The notes beneath the pieces were generated by a model, which was not told the origin of the DNA, made no database searches, and worked only from the letters and a program-made list of their open reading frames with translations. Positions 3,187 to 45,032 of a DNA stretch of 64,000 bases are shown in pieces. A program made the translations under genes and the position numbers. This DNA comes from Picosynechococcus sp. PCC 7003 (GTDB lineage: Bacteria > Cyanobacteriota > Cyanobacteriia > Cyanobacteriales > MRBY01). The stretch lies in assembly GCF_001693255.1 (NCBI RefSeq), contig NZ_CP016474.1, positions 2,622,661-2,686,660 on the forward strand, written 5' to 3'. Each line of letters begins with the position of its first letter. Position 1 is the first letter of the stretch.

Positions 3187-5076
3187 TTAGATGGTGAACA
3201 AACAGGCGGTTTCTATTGCTGGATCTTGGTTAGGTTGGCTGTCTGGATGTTCGCCAACAAGCAATAAATCATATCGCTCCGAGTGAGTGAGTTCTTCTTT
3301 TATGCTGAAGACATTAAATGTGACATGGGGATATCGAAGAGCCAGTTGCAAGCCAACCAATCGTTCATAATGTTGGCTGATATGAGCTCTCGGACATCCA
3401 ATAATCGCCACTTGATTGGCTTGTTCTAGGGCTATGGCATTTTCTAAGGTGACCTGACCACTGGGTAATGTCGCGTGTGTCCAGGTGGTGTGGATATTTA
3501 AAATAACATGGGCAATAACCAAAATACTTAATCCGTAAGACATCGTGTTTGAACCTTTAGATGCAAGCAAGGTCTGAAACCATAGGAGCAACTGGAGCCC
3601 CCCCCAAATCGCCAAAGGATAAATGACGGTGACAGCAATTTTCATTAAGCGGTATGTATAGTCAAGGGGAATAAAGGCCAATAAATATAGGATATAGACA
3701 GCAGTGACGATCAATGCTGCGCATAAATCCTGGTAGATTTGCCATTCTTTTTCTTGTTTACGCCGTTGGCATAATTTCTTTATTAAGAATAGAGCACTAA
3801 ACAAACCAACAATCATATGAAACCATAGCCCAAAATCCCGCCTTGTCGGCATTGGTTTTGGGGTTTCATGAAATAAGCTCCAAGGATTTAATGGTACGAA
3901 GTTTGAACCATGTTCATCAAAAAGGTTTAAACTTTTTTGAACTTCATAAATACCAATTTGAGACCTTAGTAGCCAGACAATTAAAAGAACACAGGCAATG
4001 GCCACCAGGGCATAATTAAGATTTTGACTCTTAAAAGTTATTTTTTTTATTTTGAAAATTTTGGCGATCGCCTTGTTTAAAGAAGATGAATAAACCAATA
4101 TTGTTGTAATATAACCAGAAATTAAAACGACAGAGAACGCTGGATAAAATGCCAGGGTGGCTAGAAGTCCTCCGATACAGAAGAGACCATGGTAAACACT
4201 CAATAAATTTGATTTTAGAGCAGCAGATCTTGTCTCTTGAAATACGACAGAGATTATGATCAAGAAAAGCAAATTTGATAAATATGAGCTAATCAAAAAC
4301 CAAATGATCATTGGAGAGGATAAGACCCAAGCCAACAAACAAATTTTTTCTAATCGTTGTCTTAGCTGTTTTTTATGATTGGCATTAATGACCTGAAATA
4401 TTTTTTGAAATAAACTCATAAAAGCAAAACCGCCAAGGACACCTTGAAAAACGGATATCCCAAGGGAAGATCCCTGGAAAGCATAGGTGAATATTGATCC
4501 CAGAAAAGAACTTAATTTTTTTGGACTGCCAATGACAAAGAAGTCAGGATTTTTCCCGGAAAATGTCAAATTGTCAACGTTAAAAGCAGCAAACCTAGGA
4601 ATATAAGCCCACATATCGGGATTTGTGTTGATCAAGAGGGGATCTAAACTGACATAGTTATTTTTTAGAAAAAAAACCGAAAATATCAAGCACCAGATTC
4701 CCAAAAAAATGGAAAAATCAAAGTTGTTTTTTATAATCTTAAACGAAAGAAAGTCAAAACCCGATACATTCTTTCTATGGATCAATAGAAGGTTACTGAA
4801 AACAATAAGCTCTATGACAAGAAAAACATAGAAGCTGTTAAACTTTACACTAATAAGACTGGCGATCGCCAATGGTAATAAGCCAACAATAGAAAAAGAA
4901 TACACTGACTGTTCTTTTGACGGTTGAGCGGCCTGGGGAAATGCTTTATCTTGATCGAGCAGTAAAAACATTTTTCGAGCCAAAAAAGTAATTAATTGGC
5001 CATTCCATTGAAGGGCGATGAAGAAGAGATATATACCGAAATAAGTACAGAAAAATACGACAAAGAAGTCACTCAT
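3187..5076 (-). CDS. Polytopic membrane protein of unknown function
   Basis: This is a 629-residue protein built almost entirely of hydrophobic helices; I count roughly a dozen or more possible membrane segments. It starts with one (FFVVFFCTYFGIYLFFIAL) at the N-terminus. A short extracytoplasmic-looking loop (NTNPDMWAYIPRFAAFNVDN) follows the early helices, and a soluble tail of about 90 residues closes the protein. The topology recalls large multi-pass glycosyltransferase-like or polymerase-like membrane proteins, but I see no diagnostic motif and assign no function. The gene is noticeably more AT-rich than its neighbours and is flanked by AT-rich spacers on both sides, which hints at acquisition. 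However, it already contains HIP1 sites at about 4057 and 4861, so any transfer is not recent. Confidence 0.8.
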   Translation of the reverse strand: MSDFFVVFFCTYFGIYLFFIALQWNGQLITFLARKMFLLLDQDKAFPQAAQPSKEQSVYSFSIVGLLPLAIASLISVKFNSFYVFLVIELIVFSNLLLIHRKNVSGFDFLSFKIIKNNFDFSIFLGIWCLIFSVFFLKNNYVSLDPLLINTNPDMWAYIPRFAAFNVDNLTFSGKNPDFFVIGSPKKLSSFLGSIFTYAFQGSSLGISVFQGVLGGFAFMSLFQKIFQVINANHKKQLRQRLEKICLLAWVLSSPMIIWFLISSYLSNLLFLIIISVVFQETRSAALKSNLLSVYHGLFCIGGLLATLAFYPAFSVVLISGYITTILVYSSSLNKAIAKIFKIKKITFKSQNLNYALVAIACVLLIVWLLRSQIGIYEVQKSLNLFDEHGSNFVPLNPWSLFHETPKPMPTRRDFGLWFHMIVGLFSALFLIKKLCQRRKQEKEWQIYQDLCAALIVTAVYILYLLAFIPLDYTYRLMKIAVTVIYPLAIWGGLQLLLWFQTLLASKGSNTMSYGLSILVIAHVILNIHTTWTHATLPSGQVTLENAIALEQANQVAIIGCPRAHISQHYERLVGLQLALRYPHVTFNVFSIKEELTHSERYDLLLVGEHPDSQPNQDPAIETACLFTI

Positions 5077-5940: not shown

Positions 5941-6894
5941 TTAACGGACGTCGGCTTGGATGCCGGGACTGGCGATTTGCGTTACCCAAAGGTCGAGGGC
6001 TGGATCATTTAACTCTTGGGCAACTTGGGTTTTAAGGGTCTGGGCTTGTTCGAGGGTTTCGCAGATGGCAAAAACACTGGGGCCGGAGCCGGACATCATC
6101 GTACCGATCGCCCCGTGTTTGGCGAAACAATCACGCAATTGTTGCACTTGGGGAAATTCGGGTAAAACGACTTTTTCGAGATCGTTGTACAGCTCACGGG
6201 CGATCGCCTGGATATTTTTTTGTTGAATGGCTTTGATCAGACCGCCGGAATGGATTTGTTTCATGCGGGCATCCCAACTCGCTGCATCTTGGAGGTAATG
6301 CTCCCCAAATTGGGCGCGATAGGTTTGATAAGCCCAGGGGGTAGAGACGGCAATGTTGCTGTATTTTGCCAAGACAATTGGTATGCCATCAAGATCGGGC
6401 AATGGGTCTAAAATTTCTCCCCGTCCGGTGGCGATCGCCGTACCTCCCCCAATACAAAAAGGCACATCCGAACCCAGTTCTGCCGCTAACTCCTGCAATT
6501 CCGGTTGGGTTAACCCCAAATTCCAGAGCAAATTTAACCCCACCAATACCGCGGCACCGTCCGTTGACCCCCCAGCTAGTCCCGCAGCCACGGGGATATT
6601 TTTTTCGATGGTAATGTCCACTCCACCGCCCACCCTGGCATATATATCCGCAAAGCGCGTCATCATTAACTGGGCGGCCCGGTAGGCAATATTGCTGGCG
6701 GTGAGGGGGACTTCTGGGTGTTGGCAATAGAGATTAATGTCGCCGCTGCGGTTTTGTCGCACCTCAATCCGGTCATATAAGCCAATGGTCTGCATCACCA
6801 TCACCAACTCATGGAACCCGTCGGGGCGATCGCCCAAAATTTCGAGGTAGAGATTAATTTTTGCGGGGGCGGTCAGAAGATAGGCGGACATCAC
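5941..6894 (-). CDS. ispE: 4-diphosphocytidyl-2-C-methyl-D-erythritol kinase
   Basis: IspE phosphorylates the 2-hydroxyl of CDP-methylerythritol in the plastid-type MEP pathway, which supplies isoprenoids for carotenoids, phytol and quinones. The 317-residue length fits the family. GHMP-kinase signatures are visible: the N-terminal [12 protein letters not shown] substrate motif, the ATP-binding [15 protein letters not shown] glycine-rich motif near residue 100, and the C-terminal [12 protein letters not shown] motif. The frame opens with two Met codons in a row, so the start may be one codon later. It is a single minus-strand gene, divergent from the GTPase gene at 7088. Confidence 0.96.
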
Positions 6895-39968: not shown

Positions 39969-40094
39969 AGGAACTGGGGGAAGGATCGGTTTAGAACAGT
40001 CTCGCTTTATGATTAACTCGCTTTATGATTAAGTTTATCGGGCAAATACTGATTTACCTATCATTTTACGTTATTCCATTTTTGATTCGGCTTT
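39969..40094. promoter_or_regulatory. Divergent promoter region of ccmO and raf1
   Basis: This 126-base gap separates the two start codons and must carry both promoters. It contains a near-duplicate pair, TTTATGATTAACTCGC (around 40004-40019) and CTTTATGATTAAG (around 40022-40034), as well as GGCTTTATGATT just before raf1. The triplicate CTTTATGATT unit is visible by eye. Confidence 0.5.
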
Positions 40095-41174
40095 ATGATT
40101 GGACAACCGCAATCTCCAGAACACAAACTCTCCCCTGAAGAAACGGACGCTTTATTCCGGTCACTGCTCCACAAAGAAGGGACTTGGGTCGAGTGGGGCG
40201 TTGGTTGCCAACAACTTCAGCAATCGGGCCACAGCGCCCAGGAAATTTTTGAGCGGACGGGTTTCCAGACAGCGCAGCAAAATATGATCATTGTGGCGGC
40301 CCAGGTGTACCAAAGCATCGAAAGCAGTGGTGTCCCGGAGGATCTGCTGGCCTATTGTCGCGGCCCCCGTTCTGATGTGCTGTACGAGCTACGGATCCTC
40401 AGTCACAGCCAAAGGGCGATCGCCGCCCAAGTTTGCCAGACCAAAAGCCTTGAATTTGATGGGGCGAAGGAACTGGCCCGGGCGATGCAAGAGTTTGCCC
40501 GCTTACCTCAGATTCCTGATGGTTTTACAGAGCACCCTGGGGACGCCGTTGCCTACCAAGCCTGGCGTTCGGCCAAGCAAAAAAAAGATTTACAGGACCG
40601 CACCCGCTTGATCGCCAAGGGGTTAAAGTTTGCCCATTCCGCGACAGCCCGACAGAAAATTGAGCAACTCCTCAGTGACCTCACCATCAGCCCCACCAAG
40701 GCGGCCCCACTCCTCCCCCTCTACCGTTACGACGAAGATACCAATGTCCCCCTGTTAATTCCGGTGGCGGGATCTTTGCCCCTAGAAAGCGATCGCCTGC
40801 TGACAGTACCTCCTCTGAAGCAAGCGTCCCCTTTCAATCTCGTGACAGTTACCGCAGAGACAAGCCTGGTGCCGCTACCCAGTTGGCAAAACGTGCTTAC
40901 AGCGGGGGATCCAGTGGTGATCTTCCACCAAACCGATCAATTGCCCCAGCCCATTCCCGGCAAGCCAGAGCCTGTTTTGGTTCTACTGGATCGCCAACAA
41001 ACCACCTGGAATGACAACAGCTACTTTGCGGTGGATGCCGACGGTAAAGTGGCATTGGGTTGGTTTGCCGAAGCACCGATCGCCAAAATTTTAGGCCAAG
41101 TCCTCTTGGTGATGCGCCCGAAAAAAATTCTTGATGAGAATAACCTCCGAGAACCCTGGCAAATGGACGATTAG
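40095..41174 (+). CDS. raf1: Rubisco accumulation factor 1 (Raf1)
   Basis: Raf1 is a dimeric chaperone that binds RbcL dimers after GroEL folding and helps assemble the RbcL8 core. The 359-residue length fits. The N-terminal alpha domain (about 10-190) begins with LSPEETDALFRSLLHKEGTW and includes GFQTAQQNMIIVAAQVYQSI and the RGPRSDVLYELRIL region. The beta domain with dimerisation function (about 210-345) contains LPLYRYDEDTNVPLLIPVAG and LLDRQQTTWNDNSYF. The cytoplasmic chaperone role is established for cyanobacterial and plant Raf1. rbcLS is not in the window, but ccmO lies divergently upstream. Confidence 0.93.
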   Translation: MIGQPQSPEHKLSPEETDALFRSLLHKEGTWVEWGVGCQQLQQSGHSAQEIFERTGFQTAQQNMIIVAAQVYQSIESSGVPEDLLAYCRGPRSDVLYELRILSHSQRAIAAQVCQTKSLEFDGAKELARAMQEFARLPQIPDGFTEHPGDAVAYQAWRSAKQKKDLQDRTRLIAKGLKFAHSATARQKIEQLLSDLTISPTKAAPLLPLYRYDEDTNVPLLIPVAGSLPLESDRLLTVPPLKQASPFNLVTVTAETSLVPLPSWQNVLTAGDPVVIFHQTDQLPQPIPGKPEPVLVLLDRQQTTWNDNSYFAVDADGKVALGWFAEAPIAKILGQVLLVMRPKKILDENNLREPWQMDD

Positions 41175-41326
41175 GCCCAAAAAGCGCTACTTTTACCTTA
41201 ATTTCCATCCATTTAGCGCTGAAATTTTTGTCTGAAAATTCTCTCTAACGGTGTACTAGATAGCATTACTTTTCTAAACGATTGCGTTACAGTATGAGAT
41301 ACAGAGCGTTATTCCTGAGGTGAAAA

Positions 41327-41527
41327 ATGCCGCACTCGACCACTGCCTACACTGAAGCATCCCCAGATCACGCCATTTGGGATAGCCTGAAGCAGGCGAT
41401 CGCCCGCAGTTCTGGTTTCAAACGCTGGTATGTGAACCACTGCGAAATCCTCGCCCTTGAAAATCTCAGCGTCGATCAGCAAGTCACCATTTACCTCAAG
41501 GAAACCCTAGAGACCCTCGCCTATTAA
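41327..41527 (+). CDS. Small conserved cyanobacterial-type protein
   Basis: A 66-residue soluble protein with three evident blocks: WDSLKQAIARSSGFKRW, YVNHCEILALENLS and QVTIYLKETLETLAY. The composition and a good start context (GAGGTGAAAA before the ATG at 41327) support a real gene. I do not recognise a family and assign no function. It sits alone between raf1 and the pseudouridine synthase gene on the opposite strand. Confidence 0.65.
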   Translation: MPHSTTAYTEASPDHAIWDSLKQAIARSSGFKRWYVNHCEILALENLSVDQQVTIYLKETLETLAY

Positions 41528-41627
41528 GTGAGTCGGGTGAATATCTCCAAAGAAGCTTGGTGGACAACCGCCAATAAATCTCAAAATTTCATCATTTAGT
41601 TCCAGACATCTTTCAAGACCAGGATAG

Positions 41628-42299
41628 TCAGCGGCGTTTTCCCTTCGGTGTGCGGCTGGCTATTTTTTTGTGGGGCGATCGCTGGCGCGGCTTGGCCTTT
41701 TTTACCAAACCTTGCAAGGCCCCGATCTCTGTCGTTGTCAAATAACGCCATTCCCCCGGCCCTAAACCAGTGAGGGTCAATCTAGCTGAGCCTGTGCCCA
41801 TGGCCACACGGATGAGGCGTAACGTAGGATGGCCCACTGCGGCCGTCATGCGGCGCACCTGGCGATTTCGTCCTTCCGTTAGGGTCAGATCTAGCCAGGC
41901 TGTCGGGACATTTTTCCGGAACCGAATCGGGGGATCTCGTGGTGGTACCGTTGGCTCCGAGGTCAAACGATTGGCGATCGCCGGTCGCGTTTTTTTCCCT
42001 TGGATCATCACCCCCTGGCGTAGCTGTGCTAAAGCTTGCCCATCCGGGATATTTTCGACCTGTACCCAATAGGTGCGGGGGTGGGCAAACTTCGGTTCAC
42101 ATAGATAATGCTTTAAAGGAGCATCATTGGTCAGTAGCAAAAGCCCTTCACTATCTAGATCTAAACGACCCACAGAGTAAATATCTGGCACCGGGACAAA
42201 ATCCTTCAACGTTTGCCGCTGTGACCCTTGGGGGCTATTATCAGTAAACTGACAAAGGACGTTATAAGGCTTGTGGAGCAAAACGTATGAGTGCTGCAT
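41628..42299 (-). CDS. Pseudouridine synthase, RsuA/RluE family
   Basis: This 223-residue protein has the RsuA-type fold. Motifs include HKPYNVLCQFTDNSP near the N-terminus and the catalytic-Asp block GRLDLDSEGLLLLTND (residues about 42-57). Later come TYWVQVENIP, then the ending EGRNRQVRRMTAAVGHPTLRLIR. The lack of an N-terminal S4 RNA-binding domain fits RluE, which modifies 23S rRNA, more than RsuA. The exact target is inferred. The C-terminus is basic. Its start codon lies inside the 5' end of a divergent small-membrane-protein frame. Confidence 0.9.
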   Translation of the reverse strand: MQHSYVLLHKPYNVLCQFTDNSPQGSQRQTLKDFVPVPDIYSVGRLDLDSEGLLLLTNDAPLKHYLCEPKFAHPRTYWVQVENIPDGQALAQLRQGVMIQGKKTRPAIANRLTSEPTVPPRDPPIRFRKNVPTAWLDLTLTEGRNRQVRRMTAAVGHPTLRLIRVAMGTGSARLTLTGLGPGEWRYLTTTEIGALQGLVKKAKPRQRSPHKKIASRTPKGKRR

Positions 42300-42310
42300 T
42301 AGAACAAGAG

Positions 42311-42601
42311 ATGACTACTAACATCATGCCCGAAGTCACCTCCCAGACACCAGAAAAAATCCAACTTCAGGAAACCCAACCCAGTCCCCTGATCACTACC
42401 CCGGCGGCGCTTCCTGAAACAAAAGCAGGTGAAAATCCTCTCCTCGGCTTACTTTTGCTCATGCCCTTTATTTTTCTGATTTTGGTTGCAGCAGTCATCA
42501 TTGAGCGCCTGATTAAATGGGGTTTACGGAAATTCTTTGCCCCCCAAACTTCTCCTGCCCCTGCGATGTCGTCATCTCCCTTTGCCATATCCCATGGCTG
42601 A
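42311..42601 (+). CDS. Small single-helix membrane protein
   Basis: A short protein with a Pro/Thr/Glu-rich N-terminal half and one membrane helix near its C-terminus (LLGLLLLMPFIFLILVAAVII), followed by a basic tail ERLIKWGLRKFF. I take the ATG at 42311 (96 residues), because the earlier in-frame ATG at 42287 lies inside the pseudouridine synthase start; the next at 42326 is also possible. The function is unknown. The AT-rich region after it contains no terminator I could see. Confidence 0.55.
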   Translation: MTTNIMPEVTSQTPEKIQLQETQPSPLITTPAALPETKAGENPLLGLLLLMPFIFLILVAAVIIERLIKWGLRKFFAPQTSPAPAMSSSPFAISHG

Positions 42602-42951
42602 ACCCCATTTTTGTTAAAAACGAAAAGTTTTCATGGAGTAGCTCTCTCTCTTTTTTAAAGATTAGAAAAAGTTTGTTTATGATGTCGCCGTAGCAAGGCT
42701 TAAAATTTAAAGCTAAACTATCGAAAAAGGGAATTTTTCATTGCCTTATGGTTTGCGCAAACTAAAAAATAAAACAATTAGCTCTTGACCCTCTGTAATT
42801 CCGTAAAAATGCGGAGACTCTCTTTACAAAAGAGATAAAGTAACGGAATACAGTGGGCCTCTGTCGCTTGGGAGTGGGCGGAGACAAAACTGAAAAATAT
42901 GACTTTTTTTATATAAAATAGGGTTGATATCGACCTAAGGTTCTCACAGTT
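42602..42951. other. AT-rich region upstream of dnaE C-terminal half
   Basis: About 350 bases without a supported gene. It contains an AT-rich core (TTAAAATTTAAAGC near 42698-42713) and a hairpin TCTCTTT-ACA-AAAGAGA near 42818-42834. A frame on the minus strand (42778-43023) overlaps the start of dnaE and has no family likeness. The promoter of the split dnaE gene should be here. Confidence 0.4.
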
Positions 42952-44292
42952 TTGGTTAAAATCATTCGCCGCAAGTTCGTTGGCCATGCGCCGACCTATG
43001 ATATTGGACTCAGTCAAGACCATAATTTTTTATTGGGTCAGGGTCTGATTGCGGCTAACTGTTTTAATAAATCCCACTCAACGGCCTATGCCTACGTCAC
43101 CTACCAGACTGCTTATCTGAAGGCGAACTATCCCGTTGAATACATGACGGCACTGCTCAGTGCCAGCAGTGGCAATAAAGATAAAGTCCGCAAATATCGA
43201 GAAAATGCGGAACGGATGGGCATTCCGGTCTTGCCACCGGATATTAACGAGTCAGACCTGGACTTTAAGCCCGTGGGTGAAGGGATCCGTTTTGGTTTGT
43301 CAGCAGTCCAAAACCTTGGTGAAAATGCCATTAATGCCATTTTAACGGCACGGGAAGAGGGGCCTTTCTCAAGTTTGTCTGACCTCTGTTCCCGGTTAGA
43401 TTTGCGGGTTGTGAACCGTCGTGCCCTAGAAACTTTAATTACCTGTGGTGGACTCGATTCGCTCCATGATAATCGCCAGGCAATGCTGAAGGGTCTAGAT
43501 CTAATGATCGATTGGGCGCAGTTGAAGGCGAAGGAAAAGGCCAGTGGCCAAACGAATTTATTTGAAAGTCTGGGGGATACGGCAACGGCATTTGACGAAG
43601 CCCCTATTTTACCAAAAGTGGCTGATTTAACCTTAGAAGAAAAGCTCCGGCAAGAAAAAGAATTGCTGGGATTTTATGTTTCTGAGCATCCTTTAGAAAA
43701 GCTGCGGTCAACGATTTCGCCAATTTTATCGCCCATTAGCCTCACGGCGATCGCCAATCACATCAATAAAAAAGTCAGCGCCGTGGCGATCCTGACGGAT
43801 ATGCGCAAGATTTTTACGAAGGCTAATAACGAACCCATGGCCTTTATTCAATTAGAAGATATTTCGGGTCAAGTAGAAGGGATTGTTTTTCCCCGCACCT
43901 ATCAAAAAGTTGAACAACTCTTGCAGCTTGATAGCCGCGTCATTGTGTGGGGTAAGGTGCAACAAAAAGATGATCGGACGCAATTGATTGTGGACGATCT
44001 CGAACCCATTGAAGAGGTACGAATGTTGATGATTCGCCTCTCTCCGAGTGAGCTTCATCATACCCAGAGTCAGCAACGACTGAAGCAAATTTTGTCGCAG
44101 CAGGCTGGGGATAAGAAGAAGCGGGGGCGGATCCCGGTGATCGTGATCGTCGGAAGAGGTGGCGATCGCACCTTCATTCGCCTTGGGCAGGACTATTGGG
44201 TGGAGGACGATCACCAGGCCCTCTTGGCACTCCGACAAGGGGGCTTCCATGTCTACCGCGAAAACCTGATTCCCCAGGCCCAAGCGAGCTAA
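42952..44292 (+). CDS. dnaE: DNA polymerase III alpha subunit, C-terminal half with split C-intein (DnaE-C)
   Basis: This is the C-terminal fragment of the replicative polymerase alpha subunit. The first 36 residues (MVKIIRRKFV ... GLIAAN) are the C-intein of the cyanobacterial split DnaE intein. It has the terminal Asn36, and Cys37 (CFNKSHSTAYAYVTYQ) is the first extein residue. The N-half with the N-intein is encoded elsewhere; the two join by protein trans-splicing. The extein (about 410 residues) carries the end of the polymerase domain, the helix-hairpin-helix region, the OB-fold (MAFIQLEDISGQVEGIVFP), and the C-terminal domain. The start is TTG at 42952 with AAGG about 12 bases upstream. 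A start downstream would remove the intein. Confidence 0.95.
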   Translation: MVKIIRRKFVGHAPTYDIGLSQDHNFLLGQGLIAANCFNKSHSTAYAYVTYQTAYLKANYPVEYMTALLSASSGNKDKVRKYRENAERMGIPVLPPDINESDLDFKPVGEGIRFGLSAVQNLGENAINAILTAREEGPFSSLSDLCSRLDLRVVNRRALETLITCGGLDSLHDNRQAMLKGLDLMIDWAQLKAKEKASGQTNLFESLGDTATAFDEAPILPKVADLTLEEKLRQEKELLGFYVSEHPLEKLRSTISPILSPISLTAIANHINKKVSAVAILTDMRKIFTKANNEPMAFIQLEDISGQVEGIVFPRTYQKVEQLLQLDSRVIVWGKVQQKDDRTQLIVDDLEPIEEVRMLMIRLSPSELHHTQSQQRLKQILSQQAGDKKKRGRIPVIVIVGRGGDRTFIRLGQDYWVEDDHQALLALRQGGFHVYRENLIPQAQAS

Positions 44293-44339
44293 CAATTACT
44301 TCTACTTTTTAAAAGAAACCCATAAAACCCATAAATCCT

Positions 44340-45032
44340 ATGTCTTACACTTACGAATATCCAAAACCGGGCGTTACCGTTGACTGTGTTGTGTTTGGCC
44401 TCGACGCCACACACACCCTGAAAATGATGCTGATCCAGCGGGGGGTTGAACCCTTCAAAGGAGAATGGGCCTTGCCGGGAGGCTTTGTGCGCCTTGATGA
44501 ATCCCTCGAAGAAGCGGCGATGCGTGAACTCCGGGAAGAAACCGGCGTCGAGAAAATCTTTTTAGAGCAGCTCTATACCTTTGGGGCTCCGGATCGGGAC
44601 CCGCGCGATCGCGTCATTACCGTGGCCTATTATGCGTTGATTAACCTAGAGGATCATCCGATCCATGCCCAAACCGATGCTGATGACGTGGCTTGGTTCT
44701 CGCTGGATGAGTTGCCCGATGTCGCTTTTGATCACCAACAAATCATTGATGTGGCGACCCAGCGACTCCAGGGTAAACTCCGCTATGAACCCATCGGCTT
44801 TGAGTTGCTGCCGCGCAAATTCACCTTGACCCAACTACAAAAACTCTATGAGCAGATTTTGGGAACCCAACTGGATAAACGGAACTTCCGGCGCAAAATC
44901 CTTAAAATGGATCTCTTGATTAAATTAGATGAGCTGCAAACGGGGGTTGCCCACCGAGCGGCGCGTCTCTATTCCTTTGATGAGGCGAAATATCAACGGC
45001 TCAAGGAGGCTGGCTTCAATTTTGAACTCTAG
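44340..45032 (+). CDS. Nudix hydrolase with NrtR-like winged-helix domain
   Basis: This 230-residue protein has an N-terminal Nudix domain with an intact Nudix box (residues about 44-66; G-x5-E-x7-REL-x-EETGV pattern). The C-terminal about 80 residues begin [19 protein letters not shown] and include [12 protein letters not shown], typical of the NrtR winged helix. NrtR proteins bind ADP-ribose and repress NAD-biosynthesis genes; others of this family are active ADP-ribose pyrophosphatases. Since the box is intact, either role is possible. No NAD gene is adjacent in the window. It has its own short leader and sits 48 bases after dnaE-C. Confidence 0.85.

What the first reader, a model, noticed from the sequence alone, without database searches (positions are those of the whole stretch)
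42952..43082. Split replicative polymerase: C-intein of DnaE with a TTG start codon
Sequence shows the last 36 residues of a split intein (ending AAN) fused to Cys37 of the DnaE C-extein, with TTG as the only plausible start. Established knowledge: cyanobacterial split DnaE inteins trans-splice. The rare start codon may tune DnaE-C to the level of DnaE-N. The unusual basic stretch IRRKFVGHAP in the C-intein could affect the docking with N-intein.
Basis: partly seen in the sequence, partly recalled or inferred. Interest (0 to 1): 0.55.

Follow-up and report, generated by a model that had tools for sequence, protein, structure and literature searches.

The report
Cyanobacterial split DnaE C-intein, TTG start
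This is an ordinary half-gene of a cyanobacterial DNA polymerase that is glued to its other half by a split intein; its odd TTG start codon is shared by its whole genus, and some related genomes still carry a homing-endonuclease gene between the two halves, which suggests how the split arose.

Summary
Confirmed: window 42952-44292 (+) is dnaE-C, a TTG-started gene: a 36-residue C-intein ending AAN, then the DnaE C-extein from Cys+1. The partner dnaE-N with its N-intein lies 1.16 Mb away; the own-genome search shows no intact dnaE. This is the canonical trans-splicing split DnaE intein of cyanobacteria. TTG is very probably the real start: it stands in 6 of 6 genomes of the genus (Picosynechococcus), conservation begins there, and the same place reads ATG (84) or GTG (19) in 103 other distinct loci. 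The 'unusual basic stretch' is ordinary. Tuning by TTG is untested.

Relatives show more. In 18 of 319 genomes of the order, and in a few of other orders, the halves sit in place around a LAGLIDADG endonuclease gene, intact or decaying, whose stop overlaps the dnaE-C start by 8 nt (17 of 17 readable). Five genomes in two genera carry a fused cis form. The split DnaE intein may thus descend from a three-gene homing element, the dnaE-C start codon being its fossil.

The parts
42925..42927 (+). in-frame TGA stop upstream, limiting the open frame
   Evidence: read; open frame 454 codons
42890..42919 (+). promoter-like hexamers CTGAAA-18-TAAAAT; lies in a block conserved in the three closest species of the genus
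   Evidence: 4 promoter-like sites found vs 2.1 +/- 1.6 in shuffles, so weak alone; conservation
42937..42940 (+). AAGG, weak Shine-Dalgarno-like match 11 nt before the start codon
   Evidence: read; kept in 3 of 6 species; inference
42952..42954 (+). TTG start codon of dnaE-C
   Evidence: TTG in 6 of 6 genus genomes
42952..43059 (+). 36-residue C-intein MVKIIRRKFVGHAPTYDIGLSQDHNFLLGQGLIAAN
   Evidence: TIGR01443; PDB DnaE C-inteins
43060..43062 (+). Cys+1, first residue of the C-extein (splice junction N36/C37)
   Evidence: five intein-less relatives read FAEY|CFNK without a gap
43060..44289 (+). DnaE C-extein, 410 aa (HHH_6 at residues 90-177, OB fold at 289-353 of the ORF)
42952..44292 (+). 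dnaE-C gene, 446 aa and stop
   Evidence: NF005616 above cut-off

Best explanation
This is the dnaE-C gene of a Picosynechococcus-type cyanobacterium. [quoted passage not shown] The product meets the separately encoded DnaE-N, which ends in the N-intein. The acidic N-intein and the basic C-intein associate, fold into one HINT domain, cut themselves out and join ...KFAEY to CFNK..., giving intact DnaE. Shown here: both genes, both intein halves, the catalytic motifs, the absence of an intact dnaE in the assembly, and the conservation of the TTG. Inferred: splicing itself and use of the TTG.
For: ORF and sequence. C-intein homology to solved split DnaE inteins and NCBIfam models. dnaE-N in the same genome at C1:1506849-1509524 (-), 891 aa, ATG start...KFAEY then CLAGDTPVVTVEYG...ATPDHKF..., that is Cys1 and a TxxH motif. 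Searching the own genome with the DnaE family gives three pieces, all in these two genes. All 6 genomes of the genus carry both halves. In the genus alignment, conservation begins at the TTG and the DNA upstream is largely unalignable between the two branches. TTG in 6 of 6 genus members; at the same place 84 ATG and 19 GTG in 103 other distinct loci (assigned by position). Charges: own N-intein -8, own C-intein +2, as expected for electrostatic capture (passages of PMC11923092).
Against: None strong. The Shine-Dalgarno match is weak and promoter-like hexamers are not clearly above chance. No expression or splicing data. Five of 124 loci in the start-codon survey could not be read by the pattern and were dropped, and in a few others a second start codon lies within two codons of the assigned one.
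Confidence: 0.97

Rival explanations
1. The TTG is kept by selection to lower DnaE-C synthesis to the level of DnaE-N.
For: TTG in 6 of 6 species of the genus at DnaE-C identities down to 80%, although a change to ATG needs one base; dnaE-N starts with ATG in 6 of 6.
Against: The six are one clade (100/100 in the C-extein tree), so this may be a single inherited event. Most relatives surveyed use ATG (84 of 109). In relatives with the in-place gene array the start is GTG in 11 of 17, so near-cognate starts at this site may simply be old. Genome-wide use of TTG in this genus was not measured.
Confidence: 0.25
2. The C-intein piece is a remnant and the functional polymerase is encoded elsewhere.
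For: None found.
Against: No other DnaE in a 99.98% complete genome; partner with N-intein present; both halves in 6 of 6 genus genomes.
Confidence: 0.01
3. Translation starts downstream and the product lacks the intein.
For: None; the next in-frame TTG is at residue 28, inside the intein, and the next ATG at residue 65 (read).
Against: Codon-type conservation starts at the TTG and the C-intein is conserved across the cyanobacteria surveyed.
Confidence: 0.01

Closest known systems
Split DnaE inteins of cyanobacteria (Ssp DnaE of Synechocystis PCC 6803, Npu DnaE of Nostoc punctiforme)
   Same: Same insertion site, same split site, similar fragment sizes, same motifs, Cys+1, opposite charges.
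   Different: Start codon TTG instead of ATG; the own N-intein has a C-terminal tail that brings it to 116 residues. Both are details.
Fractured genes (Dassa et al. 2009; title seen only in reference lists; content recalled)
   Same: Relatives of this locus carry split intein halves with a free-standing endonuclease gene between them.
   Different: Here the host gene is the cyanobacterial dnaE and the endonuclease is of the LAGLIDADG type (PF14528); the fractured genes are recalled to be from phage-like metagenomic sequences with a different endonuclease family. The paper was not held.
Contiguous mini-inteins and inteins with a nested LAGLIDADG domain
   Same: Five related genomes have the DnaE intein as one contiguous mini-intein.
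   Different: In the window the intein is split and its halves are encoded 1.16 Mb apart.

Membership tests
Cyanobacterial split DnaE intein | C-intein of about 36 residues fused to the DnaE C-extein, ending in Asn before Cys+1 | tested here: met
Cyanobacterial split DnaE intein | separate dnaE-N gene with N-intein starting with Cys1 after KFAEY | tested here: met
Cyanobacterial split DnaE intein | no intact dnaE in the genome | tested here: met
   (assembly 99.98% complete)
Cyanobacterial split DnaE intein | block B TxxH in the N-intein and block F YDIG in the C-intein | tested here: met
   sequence (ATPDHKF, TYDIGL); block names recalled
Cyanobacterial split DnaE intein | acidic N-intein and basic C-intein | tested here: met
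   -8 and +2
Cyanobacterial split DnaE intein | protein trans-splicing activity | not testable with these tools
   needs co-expression or proteomics
Fractured gene / split intein with own homing endonuclease (considered for the window locus) | halves in place with an endonuclease gene between them | tested here: not met
   halves far apart; no endonuclease relative in G000 at E<=0.001; no remnant in window 40001-45000 or in L031 (dnaE-N) at E<=10
Fractured gene / split intein with own homing endonuclease (for the related loci) | halves in place, same strand, endonuclease gene between them | tested here: met
Fractured gene / split intein with own homing endonuclease (for the related loci) | endonuclease cuts the intein-less dnaE allele and drives homing | not testable with these tools
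   only indirect: dN/dS 0.08-0.20 in 12 chosen pairs, both LAGLIDADG motifs kept, intein-less alleles in two genera, one of which holds arrays

The most novel reading that the evidence does not exclude
The cyanobacterial split DnaE intein descends from, and in several living lineages still is, a mobile three-gene element (dnaE-N, a free-standing LAGLIDADG homing endonuclease, dnaE-C). The endonuclease stop codon overlaps the dnaE-C start by 8 nt (xTGGTTAA), so the dnaE-C start codon, TTG in this window, is the fossil of a coupled start at the end of the endonuclease gene. Loss of the endonuclease then led either to halves that drifted apart, as in this genome, or, at least twice, to re-fusion into a cis-splicing mini-intein.
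Probability: 0.6. Interest if true: 0.65.

Novelty: new member of a known kind. Interest (0 to 1): 0.4.

Why it matters
The window's gene itself adds one more standard split DnaE intein, with a start codon that annotators could easily miss. What matters more is the comparison it led to. The origin of the split DnaE intein, a much-used protein-engineering tool, is described as a break in a mini-intein (passage), or that of split inteins in general as endonuclease invasion (passage). Living genomes with N / endonuclease / C arrays, with decayed arrays, with far-apart halves, with fused inteins and with no intein, several of these states within single genera, make the order of the steps directly testable. 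They also offer natural cis and trans versions of the same intein for engineering.

Tried and rejected
Rejected: remnant or pseudogene (partner present, no intact dnaE); downstream start (conservation begins at the TTG); unusual charge pattern (ordinary among 106 C-inteins); endonuclease remnant beside the window's own dnaE-C or its dnaE-N (none at E<=10 in window 40001-45000 and L031; none in the whole genome at E<=0.001). The promoter and terminator scan gave numbers within or near chance. A fold of the endonuclease came out at low confidence (mean pLDDT 61, pTM 0.57). Its five best PDB matches are LAGLIDADG endonucleases (E 1e-4 to 8e-4, but TM-scores only 0.27-0.47), so the family call rests on Pfam PF14528, not on the fold. 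Not done: genome-wide start-codon usage in the genus, so how rare TTG is there remains unknown. The proteins of the G388 insert gave a Uma2 domain, a weak AbiEii hit (E 0.006) and a sub-threshold Pfam hit (E 0.059). Literature: ten searches of a CC-licensed library. No listed title, abstract start or passage that I saw describes an endonuclease gene between cyanobacterial dnaE halves or a fused form of this intein, but the two papers most likely to (Caspi 2003, Dassa 2009) are not held, so novelty in print is open.

Weak spots of the side finding. Most genomes lack the endonuclease (301 of 319; 380 of 388; in family f46 12 of 14), so that it is ancestral is inferred; an endonuclease that invaded an already split intein later and spread by homing would also give arrays in scattered families. 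The distant-half remnants in genus g34 are short (27, 43 and 33 residues at E 0.001, 0.027 and 0.15 in a small database). The count of fused genomes (5 of 290) is a lower bound because the match list was cut. The dN/dS pairs were chosen, 4 of 12 have dS above 1, and the ends of the gene were left out. The intein tree has only 134 columns and 7 of 22 inner branches strongly supported; one row (G388) was dropped for lack of a readable C-intein, and three rows entered with the N-intein alone.

Full report
What is there. The TTG-started ORF at 42952-44292 (+) is real: 446 codons, in-frame TGA at 42925-42927, no ATG, GTG or TTG between. Residues 1-36 are a C-intein ending AAN; residue 37 is Cys+1 of CFNKSHSTAY. 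NCBIfam NF005616 scores 701 bits against a cut-off of 646, TIGR01443 (intein C-terminal region) 17.9 against 15.6; Pfam finds HHH_6 and an OB fold in the C-extein. A 37-residue query matches 14 distinct PDB sequences, named as DNA polymerase III alpha, its OB-fold part, or DnaE intein.

The partner. In the same genome (G000, 3 contigs, 99.98% complete) a search with the DnaE family NF005617 gives three pieces: two in one 891-aa gene at C1:1506849-1509524 (-) and one in the window gene. The 891-aa gene starts with ATG and ends with the N-intein after KFAEY: CLAGDTPVVTVEYG...ATPDHKF.... No intact dnaE was found. The halves lie about 1.16 Mb apart on opposite strands. All 6 genomes of the genus have both halves. 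The genus is named Picosynechococcus here because the closest named record is Picosynechococcus sp. PCC 7117 (95% identity over 183 residues).

The start codon. In an alignment of the six genus loci, conservation starts at the TTG; upstream only the three closest species align well, in a block that contains promoter-like hexamers and AAGG. Of 124 loci read, 5 failed the pattern and 10 were duplicates. In the remaining 109 the codon at the start position (36 codons before Cys+1, or 35 or 37 where no start codon stands at 36) is ATG in 84 (72, 6 and 6), GTG in 19 (11 and 8) and TTG in 6, and the 6 are exactly the genus members (tally mine from that output). The assignment is by position only; a few loci have a second candidate within two codons. 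dnaE-N starts with ATG in 6 of 6. TTG is thus a genus-wide, probably single-origin trait. Whether it tunes expression was not testable.

The charge pattern. Net charge of the own C-intein is +2 and of the own N-intein -8; among 106 distinct C-inteins the mean is +1.0 (sd 1.4), 16 are more positive and 19 equal, the own one among them. The basic stretch is normal and fits the capture-and-collapse model as described in passages of PMC11923092.

How it works. DnaE-N and DnaE-C are translated from distant genes, the oppositely charged intein halves associate and fold, and the intein cuts itself out, joining KFAEY to CFNK. The parts are shown; splicing in this strain is inferred from the well-studied Ssp and Npu relatives.

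What the relatives show: fused forms. A 148-residue query spanning the N/C junction of one genome (G366) was searched in 290 genomes of the order (the list of matches was cut). In five (G366, G586 of one genus; G478, G490, G524 of another) it matches end to end (in G524 from residue 2) inside one long frame: the intein is contiguous, without endonuclease, in an intact dnaE. Searches with the N-intein and with the C-extein find no separate halves in these five; a second N-intein match in G366 is 31% identical in another gene and a second C-extein match in G586 lies in the same gene. In the same two genera other species have split halves (G463, G522, G597 far apart; G501, G549 in place) and others have no intein at this site, reading FAEYCFNK straight through (G476, G569, G573; G439, G465). 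In a C-extein tree the three states mix inside each genus clade (both 100/100). In an intein tree the fused inteins of each genus group with the split inteins of the same genus (98/92 and 95/96). Two independent changes between split and fused are the simplest reading; fusion from split is favoured because the other inteins in that tree are all split, but the direction is inferred.

What the relatives show: an endonuclease gene between the halves. In G501 and G549 the 764-768 nt between dnaE-N and dnaE-C, same strand, encode a protein with two LAGLIDADG motifs (LLGLMAADG, LLGYFDGDG), Pfam PF14528 E 5e-11. A search of 319 genomes of the order finds it in 18; in all 18 a fetched locus holds dnaE-N or dnaE-C or both; one further weak match in G544 lies elsewhere. 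A profile search of 388 genomes of the class finds 8; in G123, G127, G162, G005, G045 and G061 (families f7, f40, f27, f20, f25, f42; G045 and G061 in part only) it lies at dnaE, while G025 and G197 are weak and were not examined. For geometry I examined 18 loci (15 of the 18 order genomes, plus G127, G162, G005); 17 could be read, and in 17 of 17, from seven families, the endonuclease stop ends 8 nt into dnaE-C (GTGGTTAA, ATGGTTAA, GTGATTAA or GTGGTTAG), with GGGAG, AGGAG or GGAAG just upstream and 36 codons to Cys+1; the dnaE-C start is GTG in 11 and ATG in 6. In G549 and G578 the endonuclease frame is broken earlier. dN/dS in 12 chosen pairs is 0.08-0.20, which points to purifying selection. 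G607 has a 123-nt gap with remnants of it. G449, G544 and G590 carry disrupted or contig-broken copies. In genus g34, distant dnaE-C genes carry short, weak matches to the endonuclease 3' end directly upstream (E 0.001, 0.027, 0.15), as expected if the halves separated after the endonuclease decayed.

Reading. I take the three-gene array as the older state: an endonuclease gene split the intein at the usual endonuclease site, its stop overlapping the new start of dnaE-C. Endonuclease decay then left halves that either moved apart, as in the window's genome, or re-fused by deletion. Against this, 301 of 319 and 380 of 388 genomes lack the gene, and a later invasion of an already split intein is not excluded; the fixed 8-nt overlap at the same start codon in seven families is my main reason to prefer the first. 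The window's TTGGTTAA keeps the overlap motif; 4 of 6 genus members do, the other two have GTC at codon 2. This last point is weak alone, since Val-Lys may be kept for structure. Geometry, selection and distribution are shown; the order of events and mobility are inferred.

Novelty. The window locus is a standard member of a known family. For the array and the fused forms I found nothing in the passages I read or the listings. Fractured genes (Dassa 2009, known here by title and recall) are the clear precedent for the principle, and that paper and Caspi 2003 could not be read.

Noticed in passing
L236 (G501) 1501-2277; also L237-L250, L264, L265: Free-standing LAGLIDADG endonuclease gene between dnaE-N and dnaE-C, its stop overlapping the dnaE-C start by 8 nt; 18 of 319 genomes of the order.
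   Followed up: yes
L086 (G366), L177 (G586), L178 (G478), L179 (G490), L180 (G524): Intact dnaE genes with a contiguous cis mini-intein at the usual split site, in genera that also hold split and intein-less species.
   Followed up: yes
L086 1347-6122, L178 982-6345, L180 1093-6450: These dnaE frames (1591, 1787, 1785 aa) are longer than the fused intein alone explains; in L086 a second intein-like insert follows ...ADILRR.
   Followed up: no
L258 (G388) 3265-3369 and 6288-6392: In one genus member the 3' end of dnaE-N is repeated (105 bp, 86% identity) about 2.9 kb downstream; between lie a Uma2-domain gene and two unknown genes, as if an element inserted into the end of dnaE-N and supplied a new end.
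   Followed up: partly
G590 C1:3736724-3740002 (L251, L256): The endonuclease gene between the dnaE halves is interrupted by about 2.5 kb.
   Followed up: no
L031, L259-L262, L258: The C-terminal tail of the N-intein varies strongly in length and sequence inside the genus (N-intein 107-116 residues).
   Followed up: no
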